Virus record (IMG/VR): IMGVR_UViG_3300036945_000747
Location: 1 to 45,602 of that record
Reading direction: 5' to 3' (one strand)
Length of the DNA stretch: 45,602 bases
Source of the DNA: a virus
A model generated the notes under the pieces. The model saw only the letters and a program-made list of their open reading frames with translations, was not told the DNA's origin and made no database searches. The first letter of the stretch is position 1. Each line of letters starts with the position of its first letter. A program made the translations under genes and the position numbers. Positions 6,964 to 45,443 of this stretch are shown one piece after another.

Positions 6964-7160
6964 TTCCCAACCTCCTTCAACTTCCGTCGGATCGTCAGCG
7001 CTCGGTTCAATTCTTTAAGGTGGGCTGGATTTTGATTTGGCGCGAATGTCAGGTTAGAGATCGCCGAGCTCACATGTTTTTCGGCAGCTAGCTGGCGACG
7101 AAGCAGGTAGATGGTTTGCTTCATTTTGGCGTGAACCACCTTGTGCCGACCGATTGTCAT
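6960..7160 (-). CDS. small helical protein, 66 aa
   Basis: A basic, helical 66-residue protein (LLRRQLAAEKHVSSAISNLTF). It overlaps both neighbours by 4 bp (ATGA at 7157-7160 and 6960-6963), strong evidence that it is translated as part of the operon. No motif recognised. It may be an accessory factor to the methylase upstream or the nuclease downstream, but the sequence does not tell. Confidence 0.55.
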   Translation of the reverse strand: MTIGRHKVVHAKMKQTIYLLRRQLAAEKHVSSAISNLTFAPNQNPAHLKELNRALTIRRKLKEVGK

Positions 7161-8899
7161 GCCACCCCCCTTTCCATGTTCATTGCCTCTTCCGCATCGA
7201 CCAGCGCCGCGACGTTGGAGTTCTGTGAGAGAACCGCGGCGACGATGGCGCGAGCCAAACGGCGAGGAACGGCATTTCCGATCTGCTTCACCTGATCAGT
7301 CTTCGTACCTGTGAACTGGTAGCCCTTGGGGAATCCTTGAGCCAGTGCCAGCTCGTGGGGCTGCAGCATCCGGAATCGGATATCAAGCAGGTAGCGATTG
7401 CCATCGATTTCCACCACTGGGCGGACCAACCCGAAGCGGTCTTTACAAGTCACCGTAGGCGCTGGGCTATCGATGTCATGTGGTTGACCATTTCCGTAGA
7501 AACTCACAAGGAATGGTTCTACGAGCGCAATCGCTCCAGATGTGGCCACGGTTGGCGCTGGCTCACTGACAGGCCGCAACCGCCCATCGCTTTGCTGAGG
7601 CAAAAGATGAGGCTCGATCAAAGCCACATCGCCGCGGTTCCCGCAGACTGTCGGCATGGGCTGGTCTAGCGACTTGATGCGTGATTCATCGCTGCCGCTG
7701 GCGCCATTCGCGGTTTTCACGAGGAAAGGCTCGGCAATGTAGAGGTGTGGGGCGTGCGCAGTGATTGTAGGTGTGGGACAATCAATGTCGGCAGCATCAC
7801 TCTGCCCCTTCATGTTTACAAGGTATGGCTGAGCAAGTGCATGGTGGTTTCCATTGGCGGTGACAGTGCCACATGGGTCATTCAAGCTCTTAGCGGTGTG
7901 ATCACGGACGCCGCTGCCGCGCAACTCCACAAGAAATGGCTCAGCGACTCCGTGGCGGGCTTTGGTCACCACGGTAGAGAGAGGGTCTTCAATGGAAGTA
8001 ACACCCGCGCCCGAACCTCCGGACGTGTGATCCCATGCGACGATATAAGGCTCAACCAAAGCTCGATGGTCTCGGGTTAAAACCGTTCCCATCGGATCGT
8101 CTACTGGCCTCGCTGGACATGCAGGCCCACCTGCCGAAATGATCACGCTTTTCAAACCGAACTTTCTCAAGCCAGCTTCGATCCTGGCCAGCGTCTTTGG
8201 GCTGAGCGGCTTCTTCCGTTCATAGATCGATCCTGCCGGCAGTGACCAGTCGATGATTTCACGAGCTGGCGTCCACCGGCGGGTTGTCATCAAATCCGGA
8301 TGCTTCGTGTGAGTAGCCTCGGGCCAAACGATCTGCCGACGTCCACGCACACATTGCACAAACAGCCGCGTCCGCGTCGTTGGGTCTCCATAGTCGGCAG
8401 CGCAGAGTTGTCGATAGTCCGTCTTGTAGCCAAGGGCTCGGATCGCGGATAGCCATGCTTGGAAGATCTCACCTTTTTTGCTTTTGAGCGGGCGGTTGTT
8501 TGATCCTATCGGCCCCCAGGACTCAAACTCGGGAACATTCTCAATCAGGATCACGGGCGGCCGTAGAGCTTCCGCCCATCTGACCACGCACCAAGCGGTT
8601 GACCTCGACTGGTCGTTGATCGGCTTTCCGCCACGAGCGACGCTGTGATGCGTGCATTCCGGAGAAGCCCATAGCAGATCAAGCTCCCCCTCGCCGAACA
8701 GATCGCGAGGGTTCACCGCATCCACTCCGGTGCAAAGACTCCGCGCGGCCGGGTGGTTGACTTCGTGGGTGGTGATCGCAACTGGCCAGTGATTGATTGC
8801 TGTCAGCTCCGGTTTGCGCCCAAGAAACTCGGCAGCTTCCATCGCGCCTTCCGAGGTTCCGCCCGCTCCGCAGAAAAGATCGGCGATTCGGTATTTCAC
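7157..8899 (-). CDS. C5-cytosine DNA methyltransferase with repetitive recognition domain
   Basis: I place the start at GTG 8899, overlapping the upstream stop as GTGA and preceded by an AGGGGGGAAG purine run; this gives 580 residues. Motif I is DLFCGAGG (8-15), the catalytic Cys lies in SPECTHHS (variant of PCQ, around residue 81), motif VI is ENVPEF (120-125), and motif X is GNAVPRR (541-547). Residues 264-500, where the target-recognition domain belongs, contain seven repeats of 26-38 residues with the pattern D-x-P-x-x-TV...ALVEP(F/Y)LV. It methylates cytosine at C5, probably protecting phage DNA from restriction. Complete and likely active. Confidence 0.9.
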   Translation of the reverse strand: MKYRIADLFCGAGGTSEGAMEAAEFLGRKPELTAINHWPVAITTHEVNHPAARSLCTGVDAVNPRDLFGEGELDLLWASPECTHHSVARGGKPINDQSRSTAWCVVRWAEALRPPVILIENVPEFESWGPIGSNNRPLKSKKGEIFQAWLSAIRALGYKTDYRQLCAADYGDPTTRTRLFVQCVRGRRQIVWPEATHTKHPDLMTTRRWTPAREIIDWSLPAGSIYERKKPLSPKTLARIEAGLRKFGLKSVIISAGGPACPARPVDDPMGTVLTRDHRALVEPYIVAWDHTSGGSGAGVTSIEDPLSTVVTKARHGVAEPFLVELRGSGVRDHTAKSLNDPCGTVTANGNHHALAQPYLVNMKGQSDAADIDCPTPTITAHAPHLYIAEPFLVKTANGASGSDESRIKSLDQPMPTVCGNRGDVALIEPHLLPQQSDGRLRPVSEPAPTVATSGAIALVEPFLVSFYGNGQPHDIDSPAPTVTCKDRFGLVRPVVEIDGNRYLLDIRFRMLQPHELALAQGFPKGYQFTGTKTDQVKQIGNAVPRRLARAIVAAVLSQNSNVAALVDAEEAMNMERGVA

Positions 8900-9165
8900 C
8901 CTTCCCCCCTTTCCCACAACTGACAGGCCGGCGACTTCGCGCGGATGTCGGTTTTCGGCCCACGGGTCCAAGCATGTTTCACCAGCCCACATTTCAGATA
9001 GGTTTTCGCGTGCTGGATGCGGCACAGGTGCTTGCAGGTCTTGCAGCTTTCGCCCTCAGGGCCTGAGCCCGGGCGTGAAGCGTAACCGCGTGCAGATTCA
9101 TCGCGCTTGCCCTTGGTTTTGAATGTCCCGATTGGCCTTTTCCAAAGATCGACTTCTTCACTCAC
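8896..9165 (-). CDS. small zinc-finger-like phage protein, 89 aa
   Basis: Contains C-x2-C-x3-C (CKTCKHLC), KCGL and a PKTDIRAKSPACQLWE end, a combination I recognise from small unnamed phage proteins next to methylase genes. The Cys set suggests one zinc site. It overlaps the ASCH gene upstream (ATGA, 9162-9165) and the methylase downstream (GTGA, 8896-8899), so it is translated with them. The role could be an adapter or regulator of modification genes; this is inference. Confidence 0.7.
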   Translation of the reverse strand: MSEEVDLWKRPIGTFKTKGKRDESARGYASRPGSGPEGESCKTCKHLCRIQHAKTYLKCGLVKHAWTRGPKTDIRAKSPACQLWERGEG

Positions 9166-9548
9166 TCGACACCCCCTTCCACGTTGAAGAATCCGAGAGC
9201 GCCTTTCAGCGGACGGAATGGCAGTGGTTTGGCGTTCTCGATTTCAAAGCCGGATCCAAATGCAAACGCCATCAATGGCGGAGAGTCATGCCAAGCGATA
9301 ACTTCAGCCTCTCCCACAATGCCGCCTCGCTGAAGATCATCGAAACTCGGGAGAGTTATGCCCTCATCGGAGGCGTGATCGCATCCAATCAGATACTCCT
9401 CGCGCGTCATGCTCTTACTGGCGTGGATCAACACTCGGCCTCGAAACTTGCGGCCCGAATTTTTCGGTTGCCAATCCCGGTTTTCAAACTTCTTGTGACC
9501 GTTCACGATCAGCCATGCCCATGGTTGACGGATAGATAGAGCTTTCAC
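9162..9548 (-). CDS. ASCH domain protein
   Basis: A 128-residue protein opening with MKALSIRQPWAWLIVNGHKKFENRDW, the hallmark of the ASCH/PUA-like fold (I-R-Q-P-W-A...G-K-x-x-E-N-R). It also has GRVLIHASK and GGIVGEAEVIAW. ASCH domains are thought to bind RNA or modified nucleotides; in phages they often accompany DNA-modification genes, as here between two methylase genes. Linked to both neighbours by 4-bp overlaps. Substrate unknown. Confidence 0.85.
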   Translation of the reverse strand: MKALSIRQPWAWLIVNGHKKFENRDWQPKNSGRKFRGRVLIHASKSMTREEYLIGCDHASDEGITLPSFDDLQRGGIVGEAEVIAWHDSPPLMAFAFGSGFEIENAKPLPFRPLKGALGFFNVEGGVE

Positions 9549-12500
9549 GCTGCACCTTCCGTTTCCACAGACATGTCAAAGAGTGTTGGAACGTCCACTT
9601 GAGAAGCAGCGGCTTCACAGTATCCCACAGCGCACCTCCAGTATTCCTCATTGAGTTCACTACCCCATCCGTTTCGTCCCATCTTGATCGCTTGGAACGC
9701 GGTCGATCCAATCCCTAAAAACGGATCATAGACCACCTCGTCGGCATTGGTGTAGCGAGTGATCAATCGTTTGATGATATCGAGCTGGAGCGGGCAAACG
9801 TGCATTTCCTCATTCCGTCGGCTTTGCTCACTGTTGAGCGTTCGCATCCGGGCGATGTCGGTCCAGATGTCAGCATGGCGGGAAATCGGCGGGAAGAGCA
9901 TGAATGAACTCGGCAGCTTACCCATGCTTTCCAGCGCCTTGCAGATTTCGACATGGCTTTCATGATCGTATCCACCTTCCAGCGCGTGTTGAGTCCATAT
10001 CCGTTTGAGATCGGTCGGACTCATGTGTTTCATGATCTCAGGATCTGGCAGGCGGTTGCCGTTCGAGCGCCAGTATCCGGCAGCGTCGAGTTGCCAGTCG
10101 GCCCGGGTGTATTCTTCTTTCGGTTTTACCACCGGCACGTCTGCGTAGCCGTTGGATTGATCGCTCGGGAGCTTACGGAAGATCAACACATACTCTGGCA
10201 TTCCTGCCCCCATTTTCGAGCTATCCTTGGCGTTCTCACTCCACCCGAGGCGATACGTCTGATTGTTTTCTCTCACGACGTCAGTGTCGATGGTGATGCG
10301 AGCCATGAAGCGGAATCCTGCCTTGCGGAATGCGGCCACCGTCATATCGGAAAAAGGATCAACCGTCGGGAATCCGTCGCCAGTGACATTCCCGAAGCGA
10401 ATGCGGTCCTTGACGTGGATGGCAGCGATCCTCCCGGGCTTCAACACCTTCAAGAGTTGCGGGCAAAGGTGATCCATCTGTTCAAAGAATGCATCATTGT
10501 CGGAGTTGTGTCCGAAGTCATTGAAGCTCGGAGAGTATTCGTATTGATTCCCGAAAGGGATGGAAGTGAGTATCATGTCCACCTGATTCTCAGGCCAATC
10601 CATCAGCTCCAAAGTGGTATCGTTTCGGATGACTCTAAGGCGGTTTCCACGGACCTCTGCCCGCTCGCCTCCAGTTGTTAGTGTGCGGATTAATTCCATA
10701 GTTGTGTGTGTGCTAAGTTTATATTTTCTCATGATGCCAGTCATGGTGCGCTGAAGCTCATCGTGGCGCTGCCACTTGGCCTTGAGGTCCGCGACAATCG
10801 CGTCTTCGCTGTCGAGGTGGACGATATGAATGAAACATTTGAAAAGCTGTTGGAATCGGTGGACTCTGTGAATTCCCTGAATGAAATCCGCAAATTTGTA
10901 GCCGACTCCTACGTAAATCATCAGGTTGCATTGCTGCAAATTGACGCCCGCTCCATACATGATCGGCTTGGATAAAAAGACGCGTGTTTCCCCGCGCTTC
11001 CAAGCAAGCATTGTTCTTTCGCGCTCTTCGATCGATTGCGAACCAGTAAGTGAAGAATAGCTTATGCCGTTGGCGGACAGAAGCTGCTCAATCGCCTTTT
11101 GCTCATCATTGAGGTCGCACCAGATTATGATCTGGTCAGATAGCCCATCGCGGATTTCAGCAATTCCAGATTGTCCCTGAACATCCCGAGTCCCGCATTG
11201 CATTTCATGCAAAGCAAGCCCCTCACTTTCCCCGTCGTGTGGCAATGGTCCACATAGAGATTCTTCCCCTCGGGTGGCGGGTTGTTGCAAATCAGGCACC
11301 TGCCCCCTTGTGCTTTCTCCATCACCGCGAATTCTTCCAGCGTCAGCTGATATTCCCTCTTGAGCTTGCGGACCCTTGTTTCCAGTAGCGCACGGGTCCG
11401 GTTCTTTTGATAGAAGTCCCTTGATCTTTCCTTGAGCTTTTCGCCGTTTTCCATCTGATGATTTTTTTGGAGTTCCTTCATGCGCTCGGGATTCTCCGCC
11501 CGCCACTTCGATGATCTTGCTGCGTATTCCTCTTTCTTCGCGGCGTAGTTTCTCGCATTCCTTTCCCGCTGCTTTATCAAGAGGTGCTCCCTGTTTTTGG
11601 AGTAATAAGCTTCCTGATATGCCTTTCGGTCTTCGGTCATGTCGTATGATTTCCATCAAATAAGCGATCCGCAAGCCTATACTCTCACGTTTCGTTTCAG
11701 CGGATTCCTTCAATCCCACCGCTTGATCCATGAACATCTGAGCTTGTCCCCATCCGTCAACTTGGGACCATGCTTTTCTGTGATCGACTTCCAGCCTGTG
11801 CCAGTGGACGTGGATTTCTGGCAGATCATAGCCTTCGTCCGAGTATCCAAGATCGGACGGCCGTTGAATGAACGCGGCCCAGCTCGCAAGCCATAGCCAG
11901 AACTGCTGCTCCATGTGAGGGTAAAGCGTTAGATTTCCAGCTGTGGAGCTATCCCGTTGGAAAAACCGGGTCAGAGCCTCGCCCGTGTCCATCACCCCAA
12001 GGAATCCAGCATAGTGAATCAGCTCCTTGTATCTGTTCGGCGATGGCGTTGCGGTAAACACGAAGCGATATGGAACCGATTTGAAAAGTGGTAGAAAAGT
12101 CTGATAGGTCTTGCTCCCGTAGGATCTCAAAACGCTCGCCTCATCCATTCCGACACCTTGAAACAAGTTCACGTCAATCTTGCCATCACGGACGGATTCA
12201 TAGTTCGTGACATAGATCCCCGGCTCTTGAATCTCTTCAGTGCGGCGAATGAACGTGAGATCTAAGCCCATCGCGGGACCATCCGATTGTGTGAACTCTT
12301 GACGCACTCCAAGCGGGCAGATGATCAGGAAGCTACCTCCAGTTTTTTCGCAAACCCATTTGGCAAGTTGTAAGTGCATCCGGGTCTTGCCGAGTCCAAA
12401 GTTTGCAAAGATCGCCCGCCGTCCTCCACGGATTCCCCAAGTGCAAATGTCAACCTGGTGAGGAAACAGTGATTCATGCGGGGGCGATGGCGGCTCGAAT

Positions 12501-12682
12501 CCACAAACCTCTGCTTGAGGGATCTTCGCTTTCAGAAACTCGATGTAAGCCACCTTTTCCGGCGAATCCCCGCTAGCTGCTTCCACGTCACACCTCTTGG
12601 GGAAACAAGACGTTTCAGCTGGCACCTTTGCCACTAGCGGGTTTTCGACATCGCCACTCGGTGATGAGAAATCTGTGATCAT
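9545..12682 (-). CDS. SNF2-type helicase fused to DNA methylase, carrying a nested HNH gene
   Basis: A 1045-residue fusion. Residues 70-350 form the first helicase domain with Walker A FGLGKT (95-100) and a DEA box (180-182, GMDEAS). Residues 515-625 hold the second domain (IIIWCDLN, then QGIHRVHR as motif VI). Residues 680-1045 form an N4/N6-type methylase with motif IV SIPFGNQY (variant of NPPY) before motif I DPFLGIGST, a permuted beta-class order. Between the helicase domains about 165 residues (351-514) are low-complexity Lys/Arg/Glu/Gly: this DNA encodes an HNH nuclease in another frame. Likely role: ATP-driven DNA translocation coupled to protective methylation. ATG 10699 lies at the methylase boundary and could start a free methylase. 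Confidence 0.85.
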   Translation of the reverse strand: MITDFSSPSGDVENPLVAKVPAETSCFPKRCDVEAASGDSPEKVAYIEFLKAKIPQAEVCGFEPPSPPHESLFPHQVDICTWGIRGGRRAIFANFGLGKTRMHLQLAKWVCEKTGGSFLIICPLGVRQEFTQSDGPAMGLDLTFIRRTEEIQEPGIYVTNYESVRDGKIDVNLFQGVGMDEASVLRSYGSKTYQTFLPLFKSVPYRFVFTATPSPNRYKELIHYAGFLGVMDTGEALTRFFQRDSSTAGNLTLYPHMEQQFWLWLASWAAFIQRPSDLGYSDEGYDLPEIHVHWHRLEVDHRKAWSQVDGWGQAQMFMDQAVGLKESAETKRESIGLRIAYLMEIIRHDRRPKGISGSLLLQKQGAPLDKAAGKECEKLRREERGIRSKIIEVAGGESRAHEGTPKKSSDGKRRKAQGKIKGLLSKEPDPCATGNKGPQAQEGISADAGRIRGDGESTRGQVPDLQQPATRGEESLCGPLPHDGESEGLALHEMQCGTRDVQGQSGIAEIRDGLSDQIIIWCDLNDEQKAIEQLLSANGISYSSLTGSQSIEERERTMLAWKRGETRVFLSKPIMYGAGVNLQQCNLMIYVGVGYKFADFIQGIHRVHRFQQLFKCFIHIVHLDSEDAIVADLKAKWQRHDELQRTMTGIMRKYKLSTHTTMELIRTLTTGGERAEVRGNRLRVIRNDTTLELMDWPENQVDMILTSIPFGNQYEYSPSFNDFGHNSDNDAFFEQMDHLCPQLLKVLKPGRIAAIHVKDRIRFGNVTGDGFPTVDPFSDMTVAAFRKAGFRFMARITIDTDVVRENNQTYRLGWSENAKDSSKMGAGMPEYVLIFRKLPSDQSNGYADVPVVKPKEEYTRADWQLDAAGYWRSNGNRLPDPEIMKHMSPTDLKRIWTQHALEGGYDHESHVEICKALESMGKLPSSFMLFPPISRHADIWTDIARMRTLNSEQSRRNEEMHVCPLQLDIIKRLITRYTNADEVVYDPFLGIGSTAFQAIKMGRNGWGSELNEEYWRCAVGYCEAAASQVDVPTLFDMSVETEGAA
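11125..11640 (-). CDS. HNH/endonuclease VII-type nuclease nested out of frame in the helicase gene
   Basis: A 171-residue ORF reading the same strand as the helicase-methylase gene but shifted by one nucleotide. The C-terminal half is a recombination endonuclease VII-type HNH domain: CLIC (115-118), YVDHCHTTGKVRG (129-141, with D131-H132) and CMKCN (144-148), two zinc-binding Cys pairs around the catalytic His. The N-terminal 100 residues are repetitive charged helix (KNREHLLIKQRERNARNYAAKK), as in phage homing endonucleases. The ATG lies inside host codons for RHD and the stop inside those for DQII, so the ORF exactly fills the insertion between helicase domains. Probably a homing nuclease. 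Confidence 0.85.
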   Translation of the reverse strand: MTEDRKAYQEAYYSKNREHLLIKQRERNARNYAAKKEEYAARSSKWRAENPERMKELQKNHQMENGEKLKERSRDFYQKNRTRALLETRVRKLKREYQLTLEEFAVMEKAQGGRCLICNNPPPEGKNLYVDHCHTTGKVRGLLCMKCNAGLGMFRDNLELLKSAMGYLTRS

Positions 12683-19903: not shown

Positions 19904-20956
19904 ATGGCAAAGCGTCCGGACTTCGAACCTTGGGAGAGTGAACGCGGCTGGGTTGTGAACATCCCGAAGTCGATGAGCGTCTCGGGAAAGCGGTCGCGAA
20001 AGTACTTTTCCAGCGAGACGAAAGCGAAAACCTACGCGGCGTCCGTCCGAGCTTCACACACTTCCGGCATTCGCGGGGCGATGATCTCGGCCACTCTCGC
20101 GCTTCAGGCGGCGGAGGCGGAGCGCATCCTTGCCGGGTCAAGTGTTTCACTCGTGGAAGCCGCTCGGATGGCCGTCGCGCAGATGGGCGGTGCTGAGTCA
20201 CGCGAGACGTTCGGAGATCGTTACTGGCGAGCCATGGCGGCAAATGAGGGAACATGGTCAGACAAGTATCAAAGCCAGATGGATGACCTCCCCAAGTGGC
20301 TTCCAGAGTCGTTCATGAAGCGGGCCTGCGGTGTGATCGACCGGAAAGCCGTTGAAGCCGCATGTCGAGAAATCCGGCCATCCTTGAAGCAGTCCTCGCT
20401 TGATATGAAAGCCTCTCGGATTCTGGCGATTCTCAATTTCCGGCCAAGGCACAAAAAAGCGGGCGGGATTTCGATCTTGGATCCTGGTCAGGTTGGGAAA
20501 TGCTTGCGGGTGTGCGAGACTCCAGACGAGCGGCGGGTGGTTGCGGTGCTGTTTTTCGCGGGCATCCGGCCTGATTCTGAATTCGGGGAAATATCCCGGC
20601 TCGAATGGGATGCTTTCGGGGAGTCTGAAATTTACATTTCCAGTGATGTCAGCAAAACCCCGAGTGATCGACATATCCCGATCAGCGGGCGATTGAGGCG
20701 ATTGATTCGCGGGCATCCGTCGGAAGGGATGGTAATGCCGACCGGATGGAAGAAACGCTGGCAGCGAATTCGGCGAGACGCTGGAATTTCCGACATGATC
20801 GACGTCACTCGGCATACCTATTGCAGCAACATGCTCGCAGCCGAGGGAATGGAAGCCACTCAGGCGGCGATGGGGCATGTTCCGATGTCGCAGACGACCC
20901 GGCGCCACTACGTGAGATCGGTCCTCAAGGCTGACGGGATTCGGTTTTTCCGTTGA
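19904..20956 (+). CDS. int: tyrosine integrase (tRNA-Thr site)
   Basis: A 350-residue integrase. The N-terminal 60 residues are an arm-binding domain (WVVNIPKSMSVSGKRSRKYFSS), residues 95-180 a SAM-like core-binding domain, and the rest the catalytic domain: R222 in FAGIRPDSEFGEISRLEW, K251, DVTR (300-303), H325 in MGHVPM, and Y336 in TTRRHYV. The first His of the H-x-x-R box is replaced by Asp, a tolerated variation. It lies directly beside attP, so it mediates integration into and excision from a host tRNA-Thr gene. Confidence 0.88.
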   Translation: MAKRPDFEPWESERGWVVNIPKSMSVSGKRSRKYFSSETKAKTYAASVRASHTSGIRGAMISATLALQAAEAERILAGSSVSLVEAARMAVAQMGGAESRETFGDRYWRAMAANEGTWSDKYQSQMDDLPKWLPESFMKRACGVIDRKAVEAACREIRPSLKQSSLDMKASRILAILNFRPRHKKAGGISILDPGQVGKCLRVCETPDERRVVAVLFFAGIRPDSEFGEISRLEWDAFGESEIYISSDVSKTPSDRHIPISGRLRRLIRGHPSEGMVMPTGWKKRWQRIRRDAGISDMIDVTRHTYCSNMLAAEGMEATQAAMGHVPMSQTTRRHYVRSVLKADGIRFFR

Positions 20957-42323: not shown

Positions 42324-43748
42324 TCAGTCTCCCTCCCCGTCTTTCAGCCACGGCAGCGCTCCGACAATCTCGTCGGCGCGACCGTAGCGCTTTCCGCCTG
42401 GCAATGGCAGGTCGAACTCGAACCGTAGGCCTCGCTCGATGTCAGTCGCAGGCGCTGGCCGCTCATTGACCGCCACGACCGACCATCCCGTCGTCTGGAT
42501 TGGCCCCTTTGTGATTTCCCGCCCGTCGGAATCCCGGATCTCATACCGGTTGCCGATGAACCGTTCGGTAAGCTCACGGATGTGCTCGATTGCGTGGAAT
42601 TTCTGATAACGCCAGACGCCGCGCGAGAAAATCGCGGAAATCCGCTCCCCATCGAGGAAGTTCACCTGTCGTCGGGTGTGGGTTTTCTCGACGCACTTCC
42701 GGTTATTCAACCTCACCAGCTCGGAATCTAGACTGCGGCCGCTGAAGATCACCTTACCTCCGCGCCGACATAGAGCAGACAGCGTGAGCATCACCGCCTC
42801 CTCAGCCTGCACGGAATCCACGCTGTTCAGCACGGAGTCACAGACCACGACGTCGTAAGTCCCGAGCGTCCGCAAATCTTCGAGCACGCGGTCGATGTGG
42901 CGCTGCACCTCGCCATGGGCGATCTTGCCATCCCGCTGCAGGTAGAACTCCAGCCCGCGAATCTGATACCCCTCCGCGGCGAGCCGCTTCACGTAGGCGA
43001 GCTTCCCGGCGCCGAAGTCGATGATGCGCTCTCGTTTCGTCACATTCGGAAGCACCGCGTGCTCATAGGTCCGGCTCCGGAGTTCACGGAGGCCTCCGCC
43101 GTTGAGGCGGTTCATCTGTGCCAGCGCCTGAGCCCAAGTGGTTCGCGGGAGGTGGTCGTAGGAATAGACACCGTAGGAAGCGGAGAGGAACGAACGCGCA
43201 AGGGTCTCCATTTCCGTCGGGATCACGCGGACGTGAAGGGGGGTGCCCAGTTGCACGCAGCAGGCCGCATAGTCGCCTGAGGAGATCACCCGCCCGTTGT
43301 CGAGCGCCACAGCGCCGCCCCATGGTCCGTGCTTGGCGAGCAGACGCAGCATTTCCTTTCGCCGGATGGCCCCGCGGGCGAGCGGGTTTCTCACCGTCAC
43401 CTGGGACGGCCTGAGAACGTGCCATCCGGTCGGGAGAGCGGGAATCGTGACGCCGAGCTCGTCAGTTTCGTCGAGGTCGGAACCGTTGTGGATCTGGTTG
43501 AAGCGGATTTCCTCAGTCAAGGAAACCGGCCCGAGCAGGTGCACCGGCGTGGTTTCGAATCCCTCTGCAGTCATCGCCTTGGTGCGTTGGTGGCCAGCGA
43601 TGATGGTTCCTTCGGACACGATCACCGGCTTGACCGCTCCCAGGGCCCGCATGCTTTCGCGGAGCTTGGCGAATTCCTCGGGCGAGATCCGGCGCGGGTT
43701 GTAGGCGGCCGGCTTCAGCTTGGCGATGGGATGGCGTTCTTCAAACAT
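42324..43748 (-). CDS. ParB-domain protein fused to a class I methyltransferase
   Basis: A 474-residue protein. Residues 1-95 are a ParB/Srx-like nuclease domain (IAKLKPAAYNPRRISPEEFAKL and IIAGHQRTKAM). A linker domain follows, then residues 230-390 form a Rossmann methyltransferase: motif I IIDFGAGKLAYVKRL, GLEFYLQRDGKIAHGEV, and DVVVCDSVLNSVDSVQAEEAV (the position of the catalytic motif, without the NPPY of N6/N4 enzymes). The substrate may therefore be a base already altered, a protein or another target. It overlaps the ParB gene upstream by 8 bp and precedes the terminase genes. Confidence 0.75.
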   Translation of the reverse strand: MFEERHPIAKLKPAAYNPRRISPEEFAKLRESMRALGAVKPVIVSEGTIIAGHQRTKAMTAEGFETTPVHLLGPVSLTEEIRFNQIHNGSDLDETDELGVTIPALPTGWHVLRPSQVTVRNPLARGAIRRKEMLRLLAKHGPWGGAVALDNGRVISSGDYAACCVQLGTPLHVRVIPTEMETLARSFLSASYGVYSYDHLPRTTWAQALAQMNRLNGGGLRELRSRTYEHAVLPNVTKRERIIDFGAGKLAYVKRLAAEGYQIRGLEFYLQRDGKIAHGEVQRHIDRVLEDLRTLGTYDVVVCDSVLNSVDSVQAEEAVMLTLSALCRRGGKVIFSGRSLDSELVRLNNRKCVEKTHTRRQVNFLDGERISAIFSRGVWRYQKFHAIEHIRELTERFIGNRYEIRDSDGREITKGPIQTTGWSVVAVNERPAPATDIERGLRFEFDLPLPGGKRYGRADEIVGALPWLKDGEGD

Positions 43749-44403
43749 CGTCGTCGATGGCGAGGAGTTGGCGGACGAATCCGAAATAGGAACCGATCGC
43801 TTCGGCGTGTTGGTCGATGCGGCGCCGTAGCTCGAGACGCTCGGCTTCCGTCAGCGGGATGGACAGACCGTCGAACTTCAGTAGGCACGCCTGTTCGGAA
43901 GCGTCGGAATCCTCCGCGATGTCATCGGCTTCGGAATCGTCGGCAAGCATCCTGTCGATTTCGGTGGAGTCGAAGCCGGTCAGCTCGAGGTCGAATTCTT
44001 CGACGTCGCCGAGATCCTTCAGCAGACCCTCCAAGCTGCCCGTGTCCATGTCCGCCAGCTCGGCGATGCGGTTATCCGCCACGAGATGCGCCCATTCGTC
44101 GGCTTCCGTGGCGAATTCCTGCACGTCCACCGGCACCTCTAAGACTCCAAGCTGGATTGCCGCCTGTAAGCGTCCGTGGCCAGCGATGACGAAGCCGCTG
44201 CGTGCCGAAACTACGATCGGATTGCGCCATCCCTGATAGTGGATGATCCGGGCCAGCATGTCGATTTGCCTGACACCGTGTTTGTTCGGATTGCGAGGAT
44301 GCTGGATGAGCGTCGCCGGATCGCGCAACTCCCGGTAGCTGCATCTGATTTCTGGGCGGCTTTGATCGTTTTTATTGTTCACATGAACAATAAAACAAAG
44401 CAT
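43741..44403 (-). CDS. ParB/Srx-like nuclease-domain protein
   Basis: A 220-residue protein from ATG 44403; a TTG at 44445 overlapping the recombinase stop is possible. Residues 22-125 follow a strongly conserved phage pattern: RELRDPATLIQHPRNPNKHG, IIHYQGWRNPIVVSARSGFVIAGHGRLQAA and VDVQEFATEADEWAHLVADNRIAELADMD, described here by these shorter blocks. VIAGHGRL contains the ParB box II-like active site. The C-terminal half is acidic and helical. Such genes stand before terminase genes in many phages; DNA nicking or CTP/ATP-related roles are possible. A GGGACCACT motif lies 22 nt before the ATG. Confidence 0.8.
   Translation of the reverse strand: MLCFIVHVNNKNDQSRPEIRCSYRELRDPATLIQHPRNPNKHGVRQIDMLARIIHYQGWRNPIVVSARSGFVIAGHGRLQAAIQLGVLEVPVDVQEFATEADEWAHLVADNRIAELADMDTGSLEGLLKDLGDVEEFDLELTGFDSTEIDRMLADDSEADDIAEDSDASEQACLLKFDGLSIPLTEAERLELRRRIDQHAEAIGSYFGFVRQLLAIDDDV
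44371..44394. promoter_or_regulatory. 24-bp palindrome in the ParB gene start
   Basis: Arms TTTATTGTTCA and TGAACAATAAA separated by CA, a perfect 11-bp-arm inverted repeat in the first codons of the ParB-domain gene. The centre (GTTCACATGAAC) resembles bacterial parS (TGTTTCACGTGAAACA), with 11 of 16 positions equal by hand alignment. It may be a binding site for this protein or an operator. Confidence 0.5.
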
Positions 44404-44425
44404 CTTTGAGGGGTCTACTGCCGCC

Positions 44426-44434
44426 AGTGGTCCC
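44426..44434 (-). promoter_or_regulatory. GGGACCACT motif before the ParB gene
   Basis: Coding-strand AGGGACCACTGGC, 22 nt before ATG 44403, closer than the other copies. Confidence 0.5.
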
Positions 44435-44441
44435 TGCCAAA

Positions 44442-45443
44442 TCAAGCCAACTTCTCGAACTGCGTCACATTCGCTGGAAGTGCTACCGGTGGATAGTCCA
44501 TCGGTGAAATTACCGCGTTGCTGCCGTTGGTATGAAGATAGATTTCTGTCGTCTCCAAATGGGTATGGCCAAGGTGTTCCTGAAGAGCTCGAGGATTCTC
44601 ACCACGTTCCAACAGTGACGTGGCATTGGAGTGTCGGAATACATGGGGGCTGACCCGCTTCATGATCCCTGCTTCTTCCGCTGCCTGTTTGAGTCCGTCA
44701 GTGATGGCATGATCCGTCGCGTGCCAGCGTTCTGGCCCGAGCACAGTCATTCTCAAAACGGCAGAAGGGAACAGCCAGCAATAGGGGAGCGTGCCGAATC
44801 GTTTGCGGCCAAGCTTCTTCATGTCTTCCGGCTCAGAGGTTGGGTAGATCACTCCACGCGCCTTGTCCTGCTCCCATTGCATACGAACCGCCGCGACGTG
44901 CGTCATGAGTCGATGCATCACCGATCTAGGCAAGCGCAAAGTCCGCGATTTCCCTCCCTTGTCGTGGCGAAAAGTGATTAATCCCTTTTGCGGATCAATG
45001 TCTTTGAGCCGAGCCGTCAGAAGCGCGGTGATGCGGCTCCCTGTGCCATAGAGCATTTCAGCTTGAAGCCTTTCATCTCCGCTCATTCTGGAAATCAAAT
45101 CCATCGCTTCCTCATGAGTCAGCCACACCGGGATGTTCCGATTTTTGTTGATTGCCGGAACTGTCAGCGAGTTTGGCGGGATCTCGATGCCTAGCACCTT
45201 CTCATGATAGAACTTCAGAGCGTTCAATGCCTGCCGAACCGTCTTAGGATTTACCTTTGCCCTTGGGTCCGTCGAGAGGTAGGTTAGATAACCTTGAAAA
45301 TTGCGGCAAATTCCCATTTTTCTGGCCAATCGATACCGCATCACCCAACCGCGATAGGACTTCCGGGTATTGATCCGGTGCCCAGCTTCGAGCTGTGCAT
45401 TCTTCAATCCCATAATTGCTTCACGATCAGAGAGCGGATTCAT
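44442..45443 (-). CDS. second tyrosine recombinase, integron-integrase-like
   Basis: A 333-residue recombinase. The N-terminal SAM-like domain covers residues 10-95. The catalytic domain has R137 (LYGTGSRITALLTARLKDID), K165 in DKGGKSR, the H-x-x-R box VSPHVFRHSNATSLLERG (267-270), H293 in LGHTH, and Y302 (TTEIYLHT). All six signature residues are intact. The stretch HATDHAITDGLKQAAEEAGIMKRVSPH recalls IntI and XerC/D-type enzymes. It lies between early and late genes rather than at an attachment site, and in the circular path it is read directly after the zinc-ribbon gene. Role uncertain. Confidence 0.85.
   Translation of the reverse strand: MNPLSDREAIMGLKNAQLEAGHRINTRKSYRGWVMRYRLARKMGICRNFQGYLTYLSTDPRAKVNPKTVRQALNALKFYHEKVLGIEIPPNSLTVPAINKNRNIPVWLTHEEAMDLISRMSGDERLQAEMLYGTGSRITALLTARLKDIDPQKGLITFRHDKGGKSRTLRLPRSVMHRLMTHVAAVRMQWEQDKARGVIYPTSEPEDMKKLGRKRFGTLPYCWLFPSAVLRMTVLGPERWHATDHAITDGLKQAAEEAGIMKRVSPHVFRHSNATSLLERGENPRALQEHLGHTHLETTEIYLHTNGSNAVISPMDYPPVALPANVTQFEKLA

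What the first reader, a model, noticed from the sequence alone, without database searches (positions are those of the whole stretch)
11100..11660. HNH homing-type nuclease gene nested out of frame inside a helicase-methylase gene, with the host frame kept open
Seen: a complete endonuclease VII-type HNH ORF (171 codons) lies in the +1 frame of the 1045-codon helicase-methylase gene. Its start codon is inside the codons of RHD and its stop inside those of DQII, exactly between the two helicase domains. The host frame stays open through about 165 low-complexity residues. There is no spare sequence for a group I or II intron core, and no intein motifs. So one DNA stretch may encode a nuclease in one frame and a domain linker in another: a dual-coding mobile insertion that needs no splicing. 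I know of no described class with this design.
Basis: partly seen in the sequence, partly recalled or inferred. Interest (0 to 1): 0.88.

Follow-up and report, generated by a model that had tools for sequence, protein, structure and literature searches.

The report
Nuclease gene hidden inside helicase gene
A selfish DNA-cutting gene sits inside a phage helicase gene in a different reading frame, and the helicase frame stays free of stop codons so both proteins can be made without splicing; the design was first described in 2025, and this is a separate, larger branch of it with strong evidence that the open frame is kept by selection.

Summary
A complete 171-codon endonuclease VII-type HNH ORF (11125-11640, minus strand) lies in the +1 frame of a 1045-codon helicase-methylase gene (9545-12682), exactly between the two helicase lobes, and the host frame stays open throughout.

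It is not chance. I found 23 distinct such insertions (IMG/VR contigs, Gordonia phage isolates, a Dactylosporangium isolate genome, a Sphingobium MAG), in two lineages of opposite phase and at two sites of the same gene family. All 23 keep the host frame open (joint P about 1e-31 to 1e-49). HNH residues are conserved while the overlapping linker residues drift, so the host frame appears constrained mainly to lack stops. Empty alleles exist, distribution is patchy, and a ~75-codon tract beside the insert matches other invaded hosts rather than the window's own relatives, as expected for homing with co-conversion. Introns, inteins and split genes are not supported.

The window's nuclease family and insertion site differ from both, so this is a new variant of a recently described kind.

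The parts
9545..12682 (-). host gene: helicase-methylase, 1045 codons, single open frame across the insert
   Evidence: AF2 model
11642..12682 (-). host part 1: N-terminal region and first RecA-like helicase lobe (host residues 1-347), ending in helix 335-348
   Evidence: alignment with empty homologues; model
11125..11640 (-). nested endonuclease VII-type HNH gene, 171 codons, ATG start, TAA stop, +1 frame of host; D131 H132 H134 N148 and C115 C118 C144 C147 invariant in lineage A
11138..11641 (-). dual-coded stretch: in the host frame a 168-residue linker without Pfam match, predicted disordered (pLDDT mostly below 50)
11650..11654 (-). GGAAA, weak Shine-Dalgarno-like sequence in host codons (M-E-I) upstream of the nested ATG; the same host codons give GGAG in L017 and L019
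   Evidence: function is inference
9545..11137 (-). host part 2: second RecA-like helicase lobe (starts QIIIWCDLNDEQ) and N6/N4 methylase domain
10913..11137 (-). putative co-conversion tract: ~75 host codons after the insert, 60-76% identical (25-residue blocks; the middle block 40-60%) to other invaded hosts but 28-40% to the window's own relatives, while most blocks away from the site are 80-96% identical to L001

Best explanation
A homing-type endonuclease VII (HNH) gene has inserted into the loop between the two helicase lobes of a phage helicase-methylase, in the +1 frame and with a length that keeps the host in frame. Ribosomes translating the host read straight through the insert in its stop-free shadow frame and make a helicase-methylase with a ~165-residue disordered linker between lobes, where a loop is tolerated. 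Ribosomes starting inside the gene, at a start codon that overlaps host codons, make the free nuclease. The nuclease is inferred to cut uninvaded alleles at this site, so that repair copies the insert plus neighbouring host sequence into them. Shown here: nesting, openness under selection, empty alleles, patchy distribution, a foreign flanking tract, intact catalytic motif. Inferred: translation of both products, cleavage of the empty allele, tolerance of the linker by the helicase.
For: (1) Nesting and openness; synonymous-recoding null P = 0.007 / 0.0007 for the window, joint log10 P -31.5 / -48.9 over 23 nested EndoVII copies. Lineage A: 0 of 182 stop-forming codon contexts use a T-ending codon against 89 of 423 elsewhere, Fisher 6e-16. 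(2) Every nuclease ORF found between two helicase halves has an open host frame (23 EndoVII plus 3 Pacc40-type, counting Pacc40 itself); about 9 of 162 EndoVII ORFs elsewhere have a covering open frame, none longer than 415 codons and none matching Pfam where tested. (3) Asymmetric constraint: for L263/L264/L265, insert DNA 71-75%, HNH protein 81-83%, linker protein 39-51% identical. (4) Empty alleles: L001 for the window; Holliday, GMA1 and prophiFSQJ01-1 for Malisha, net +561 nt against Holliday and GMA1, a multiple of 3. (5) Patchy distribution: lineage A needs 5 changes on the host tree; the window is sister to empty L001. (6) Co-conversion-like tracts in the window and Malisha. (7) Lineage B HNH in the same phase at two different host sites. 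(8) Catalytic residues invariant; fold best matches T4 endonuclease VII. (9) Linker predicted disordered between helix 335-348 and strand 518-522. (10) Found in isolates: Malisha, Squiddly, Dactylosporangium sucinum JCM 19831.
Against: No RNA or protein data. The nested start has only a weak SD-like sequence in the window. The foreign tract could come from ordinary mosaic recombination between two allelic types rather than homing. Loci were ranked by match to intact queries, so split helicases may be under-sampled. The window itself is a metagenomic virus fragment. The 23 copies belong to two lineages, so they are not fully independent, although the pairwise HNH identities measured are about 37-83%.
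Confidence: 0.82

Rival explanations
1. Undescribed or highly reduced self-splicing intron carrying an HNH ORF; the host frame is restored at RNA level and openness is incidental.
For: HNH ORFs are common in phage group I introns (established knowledge); insert positions are precise and empty alleles exist.
Against: In lineage A the ORF fills the insert from one host codon to the next, leaving no room for a core. No Rfam intron hit in the window or six sister loci. A spliced insert would not need a stop-free host frame, yet all 23 have one.
Confidence: 0.06
2. The insert breaks the helicase in practice (an allele on its way to loss) and the open frame is a chance by-product of codon bias.
For: In lineage B with own codon usage a single copy is open by chance with P 0.003-0.38; the window alone is only P 0.007.
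Against: The joint probability over 23 copies is negligible. Host halves remain conserved around the insert. Invaded hosts persist as divergent lineages.
Confidence: 0.05
3. The HNH is not mobile by itself: it is carried by ordinary mosaic recombination between allelic types of the helicase, without homing cleavage.
For: The tract beside the insert matches a different allelic type, which plain recombination would also give. Nuclease genes are reported at recombination boundaries in phages (PMC10448857, title and abstract only).
Against: The tract is centred on the insert in two independent lineages. Catalytic residues are invariant. The same HNH lineage in the same phase sits at two sites.
Confidence: 0.2
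4. Intein-like protein splicing removes the linker after translation.
For: Inteins do occur elsewhere in this gene family (Job42, Pacc40, L045, L182).
Against: The linker matches no Hint or intein model, is predicted disordered, and its residues are only 29-51% identical between relatives.
Confidence: 0.02

Closest known systems
[quoted passage not shown]
   Same: HNH endonuclease in an alternate frame inside a phage methylase gene; host frame open; no intron or intein; patchy distribution; loop predicted in the host protein.
   Different: Different HNH family (HNH_3 plus zinc finger against Endonuclease_7; no BLASTP similarity); different host (plain methylase without helicase domain); the paper proposes leaderless initiation, whereas some members here have GGAG upstream.
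Pacc40 gp60 hidden HNH-like ORF (same paper)
   Same: Nested out of frame in the same helicase-methylase gene family; host frame open. Related environmental copies L028/L345 and L346/L347 found here.
   Different: Inserted at a different site (after RPSDI/L in the first lobe); unrelated nuclease (no significant Pfam hit, no similarity to the window HNH).
T4 mobA in gene 39/60 and Aeh1 mobE in nrdA (PMC2988022)
   Same: HNH homing endonuclease inserted inside a functionally important phage gene without a known intron.
   Different: Those hosts are split into separate polypeptides; here one host frame runs through.
Free-standing phage endonuclease VII-type HNH genes (PF02945; T4 endonuclease VII fold)
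   Same: Same Pfam family and catalytic motif; Foldseek best hit T4 endoVII.
   Different: Normally separate genes; about 9 of 162 sampled elsewhere have any covering open frame and none tested has a recognisable host.
Group I intron-encoded HNH endonucleases
   Same: HNH gene interrupting a phage gene at a precise site.
   Different: No intron core, no Rfam hit, host frame kept open.

Membership tests
Out-of-frame HNH insertion elements (ShiLan type, PMC11855218) | insertion in a phage host gene with no in-frame stop | tested here: met
Out-of-frame HNH insertion elements (ShiLan type, PMC11855218) | complete endonuclease ORF in another frame of the insert | tested here: met
Out-of-frame HNH insertion elements (ShiLan type, PMC11855218) | no recognisable intron or intein | tested here: met
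Out-of-frame HNH insertion elements (ShiLan type, PMC11855218) | patchy distribution over host genes (mobility) | tested here: met
Out-of-frame HNH insertion elements (ShiLan type, PMC11855218) | nuclease homologous to the ShiLan or Pacc40 nuclease (needed for membership in those two element families, not in the kind) | tested here: not met
   no similarity, different Pfam family; it works like them but is a separate family
Endonuclease VII (PF02945) | Pfam gathering score and conserved D-H-H-N with four cysteines | tested here: met
   fold
Endonuclease VII (PF02945) | nuclease activity | not testable with these tools
   needs a cleavage assay
Group I / II intron | intron core RNA | tested here: not met
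   lineage A insert fully occupied by the ORF
Intein | Hint splicing domain in the host-frame insert | tested here: not met
   no Pfam match
Homing endonuclease | cleaves the uninvaded allele near the insertion site | not testable with these tools
   only indirect: co-conversion-like tracts
Split-gene HEG insertions (mobA, Aeh1 mobE) | host gene split into two polypeptides | tested here: not met
   one 1045-codon frame

The most novel reading that the evidence does not exclude
These are portable dual-coding cassettes, a third class of intervening element beside introns and inteins. The nuclease gene has evolved a stop-free shadow frame of fixed phase, so it can enter protein-coding genes at tolerant loops, in one of three phases, with no splicing at all. 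Several unrelated nuclease families (endonuclease VII, Pacc40 type, HNH_3) reached this design, in at least two phases and three sites of one gene family and in phages or prophages of actinobacterial and proteobacterial hosts. Lineage B carrying the same phase and 5' leader to two sites is the key sign.
Probability: 0.55. Interest if true: 0.8.

Novelty: new variant of a known kind. Interest (0 to 1): 0.62.

Why it matters
Mobile elements inside genes are generally thought to need an intron or an intein to be harmless. Here selection on the nuclease gene's shadow frame seems to do that job, and the size and spread of the set (23 EndoVII copies, two phases, two sites, diverged to below 40% identity) turn a recently reported curiosity into a statistically tested class. 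It gives a clean system for asking how a protein tolerates a 165-residue nearly unconstrained insert and how selection acts on two overlapping frames with very unequal demands. It also shows that genes annotated as one long ORF can hide intact nuclease genes.

Tried and rejected
Intron: Rfam at relaxed threshold on the window gave only a spurious IRES hit far below its gathering score; six sister loci gave none. Intein: no Hint match in the linker. Split gene or bypass: one continuous host frame. Selection on linker composition: hydropathy does not differ from stop-free synonymous recodings (mean z 0.06); large hydrophobic residues only slightly low (Stouffer -3.6), measured on lineage B only because too few random recodings were open for lineage A. 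Other hosts for endonuclease VII: long covering frames in L186, L205, L180 and L318 match no Pfam family and look like chance open frames. JN020142 fetched in error (Mutaforma13); ShiLan is JN020143. Klebsiella phage endonuclease VII next to internal virion protein genes is a separate gene, not nested. Two scripts failed: an indexing error after the first row and a time-out. First literature query too narrow.

Full report
OBSERVATION. The window is a 45,602-base IMG/VR virus record with integrase, ParB-like, portal, head protease, Bet/RecT-like annealing and methyltransferase genes. On the minus strand a single ORF (9545-12682, 1045 codons) encodes a SNF2-type helicase fused to an N6/N4 methylase. 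Inside it, in the +1 frame, lies a complete 171-codon ORF (11125-11640) with a strong Endonuclease_7 match, 5e-24. Start and stop overlap the host codons RHD and DQII as described. The closest relative, L001 (DNA about 74-75% identical in the matching segments), carries the gene without the insert. Empty homologues in Arthrobacter, Pseudomonas, Pseudanabaena and Mycobacterium phages run directly from the helix ending the first lobe to the ...IIWCDLN-like strand of the second.

IT IS A FAMILY. tblastn of the HNH in phage records found it inside annotated helicase genes of Gordonia phages Malisha and Squiddly. There the HNH lies in the +2 frame of a helicase gene of about 620 codons at the equivalent inter-lobe position, again with the host frame open. 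The close empty allele Holliday differs by a net 561 nt, a multiple of 3. Scans of IMG/VR and GTDB contigs plus scripts brought the total to 23 distinct nested endonuclease VII genes. Lineage A (window, L017, L019, L099, L152, L182; always +1) lies at the inter-lobe site. Lineage B (Malisha, L132, L176, L183, L260-L265, L267-L269; always +2) lies at the same linker. Lineage B also occurs at a second site before the ...ISK... strand (L145, L270, L272, L273; still +2). Several lineage B copies at both sites share a 5' leader (host frame ...DKLA... or similar; for example TGATAAACTGGCAAC-ATG). L182 is an isolate genome (Dactylosporangium sucinum JCM 19831), which with Malisha and Squiddly argues against a metagenome assembly artefact.

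THE OPEN HOST FRAME IS SELECTED. Holding each HNH protein fixed and drawing synonymous codons, I computed the exact probability that the host frame is stop-free. For the window it is 0.007 (own usage) or 0.0007 (GC3-matched); over 23 copies log10 P is -31.5 or -48.9, while the third frame carries 1-14 stops in every copy. In lineage A, codons ending in T are absent from all 182 contexts where they would make a host stop, against 89 of 423 elsewhere (Fisher 6e-16). This does not depend on having searched for open frames: the nuclease scans ignored frame, and every nuclease ORF found between two helicase halves has an open host frame, against about 9 of 162 endonuclease VII ORFs elsewhere with any covering frame. 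The copies share two lineages, so the joint figures overstate independence, but at 37-83% protein identity the stop-forming positions have largely been re-drawn.

WHAT EACH FRAME IS SELECTED FOR. In close relatives the HNH protein is conserved while the linker is not: L263-L265 show 71-75% DNA, 81-83% HNH and 39-51% linker identity. Hydropathy of the linker equals that of random stop-free recodings. So the host frame appears constrained to be open and little else. AlphaFold2 of the host (17 sequences, mean pLDDT 63) gives pLDDT mostly below 50 over residues 352-514, flanked by helix 335-348 and strand 518-522: a disordered loop between lobes. The HNH model (pLDDT 88, pTM 0.51) has T4 endonuclease VII as best PDB match with probability 1.00 but a modest E-value, 2e-3, and low TM-score. 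D131, H132, H134, N148 and C115, C118, C144, C147 are invariant in lineage A.

MOBILITY. On a tree of 107 helicase domains lineage A needs five changes, and the window's sister is the empty L001. In the window the ~75 codons after the insert are mostly 60-76% identical to other lineage A hosts but only 28-40% to L001, L020, L021 and L022, although most of the gene away from the site is 80-96% identical to L001. In Malisha identity to Holliday drops from about 90-100% to 25-60% from about 30 codons before to 50 codons after the insert, then recovers. Both look like co-conversion of flanks during homing; plain mosaic recombination between allelic types is the main rival. Direct cleavage evidence is missing.

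HOW IT PROBABLY WORKS. Ribosomes on the host message read through the insert in the shadow frame and make the linked helicase-methylase. Internal initiation makes the nuclease. In L017 and L019 the conserved host codons V-E-I supply GGAG upstream of the nested start; the window has only GGAAA. The nuclease then cuts empty alleles. Translation of both products and cleavage are inference.

KNOWN OR NEW. Arsenault, Gosselin & Gogarten (2025, PMC11855218) described out-of-frame HNH insertions with an open host frame in mycobacteriophage methylases (ShiLan) and in the helicase-methylase Pacc40 gp60; a genome announcement (PMC12613952, abstract) mentions another. I located both of their cases in the sequence records. 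The window's nuclease is unrelated in sequence to either, sits at a different site, and belongs to lineages not named in that paper's main text (no mention of endonuclease VII or Gordonia). Older HNH insertions in phage genes split the host (mobA, Aeh1 mobE; PMC2988022). I rate it a new variant of a known kind, with the added value of a statistical test, two phases, two sites for one lineage, and unequal constraint on the two frames.

CAVEATS. No expression, splicing or cleavage data. Locus lists are capped at 80 per scan and ranked by match to intact queries. The paper library covers open-licence papers only; the bioRxiv survey of actinophage inteins cited in PMC11855218 was not found here and may include further cases.

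Noticed in passing
L410:470-3274 (+), nested ORF 855-1487: A phage gene that looks terminase-like by eye (no Pfam hit) contains an intein-like insert (CLAAGT...VHNC), and an HNH-type endonuclease ORF related to the Pacc40 type lies out of frame inside it: intein and endonuclease in overlapping frames.
   Followed up: partly
L045:82-3774 (+), nested ORF 509-1552: A helicase-methylase homologue carries an intein (Intein_splicing/Hint match) in the first helicase lobe, with a 347-aa DUF559-type nuclease ORF out of frame inside the intein.
   Followed up: partly
L182 (Dactylosporangium sucinum JCM 19831, NZ_BMPI01000035.1): One helicase-methylase gene in an isolate genome holds both a nested out-of-frame endonuclease VII gene and a Hint-type intein.
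   Followed up: partly
L068:2501-5461: Helicase-methylase homologue with an in-frame ~150-residue insert in the second lobe and no nested ORF of 90 aa or more spanning it; nature unknown.
   Followed up: no
L028/L345, L346/L347: Environmental relatives of the published Pacc40-type hidden nuclease, nested at or near the same first-lobe site (after RPSD/RPS) of the helicase-methylase with the host frame open.
   Followed up: partly
window 44442-45443 (-) and 19904-20956 (+): Two separate integrase genes (PHROG_216 and PHROG_1 matches) on opposite strands of one virus fragment.
   Followed up: no
window 42324-43748 (-) and 43741-44445 (-): Two adjacent, slightly overlapping genes both matching ParB-like partition protein families.
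   Followed up: no
window 7157-9025 (-): C5-cytosine methyltransferase of 622 aa with an extended repetitive region (repeated ...EPFLV...DPxxTVT-like motifs) between its conserved parts.
   Followed up: no
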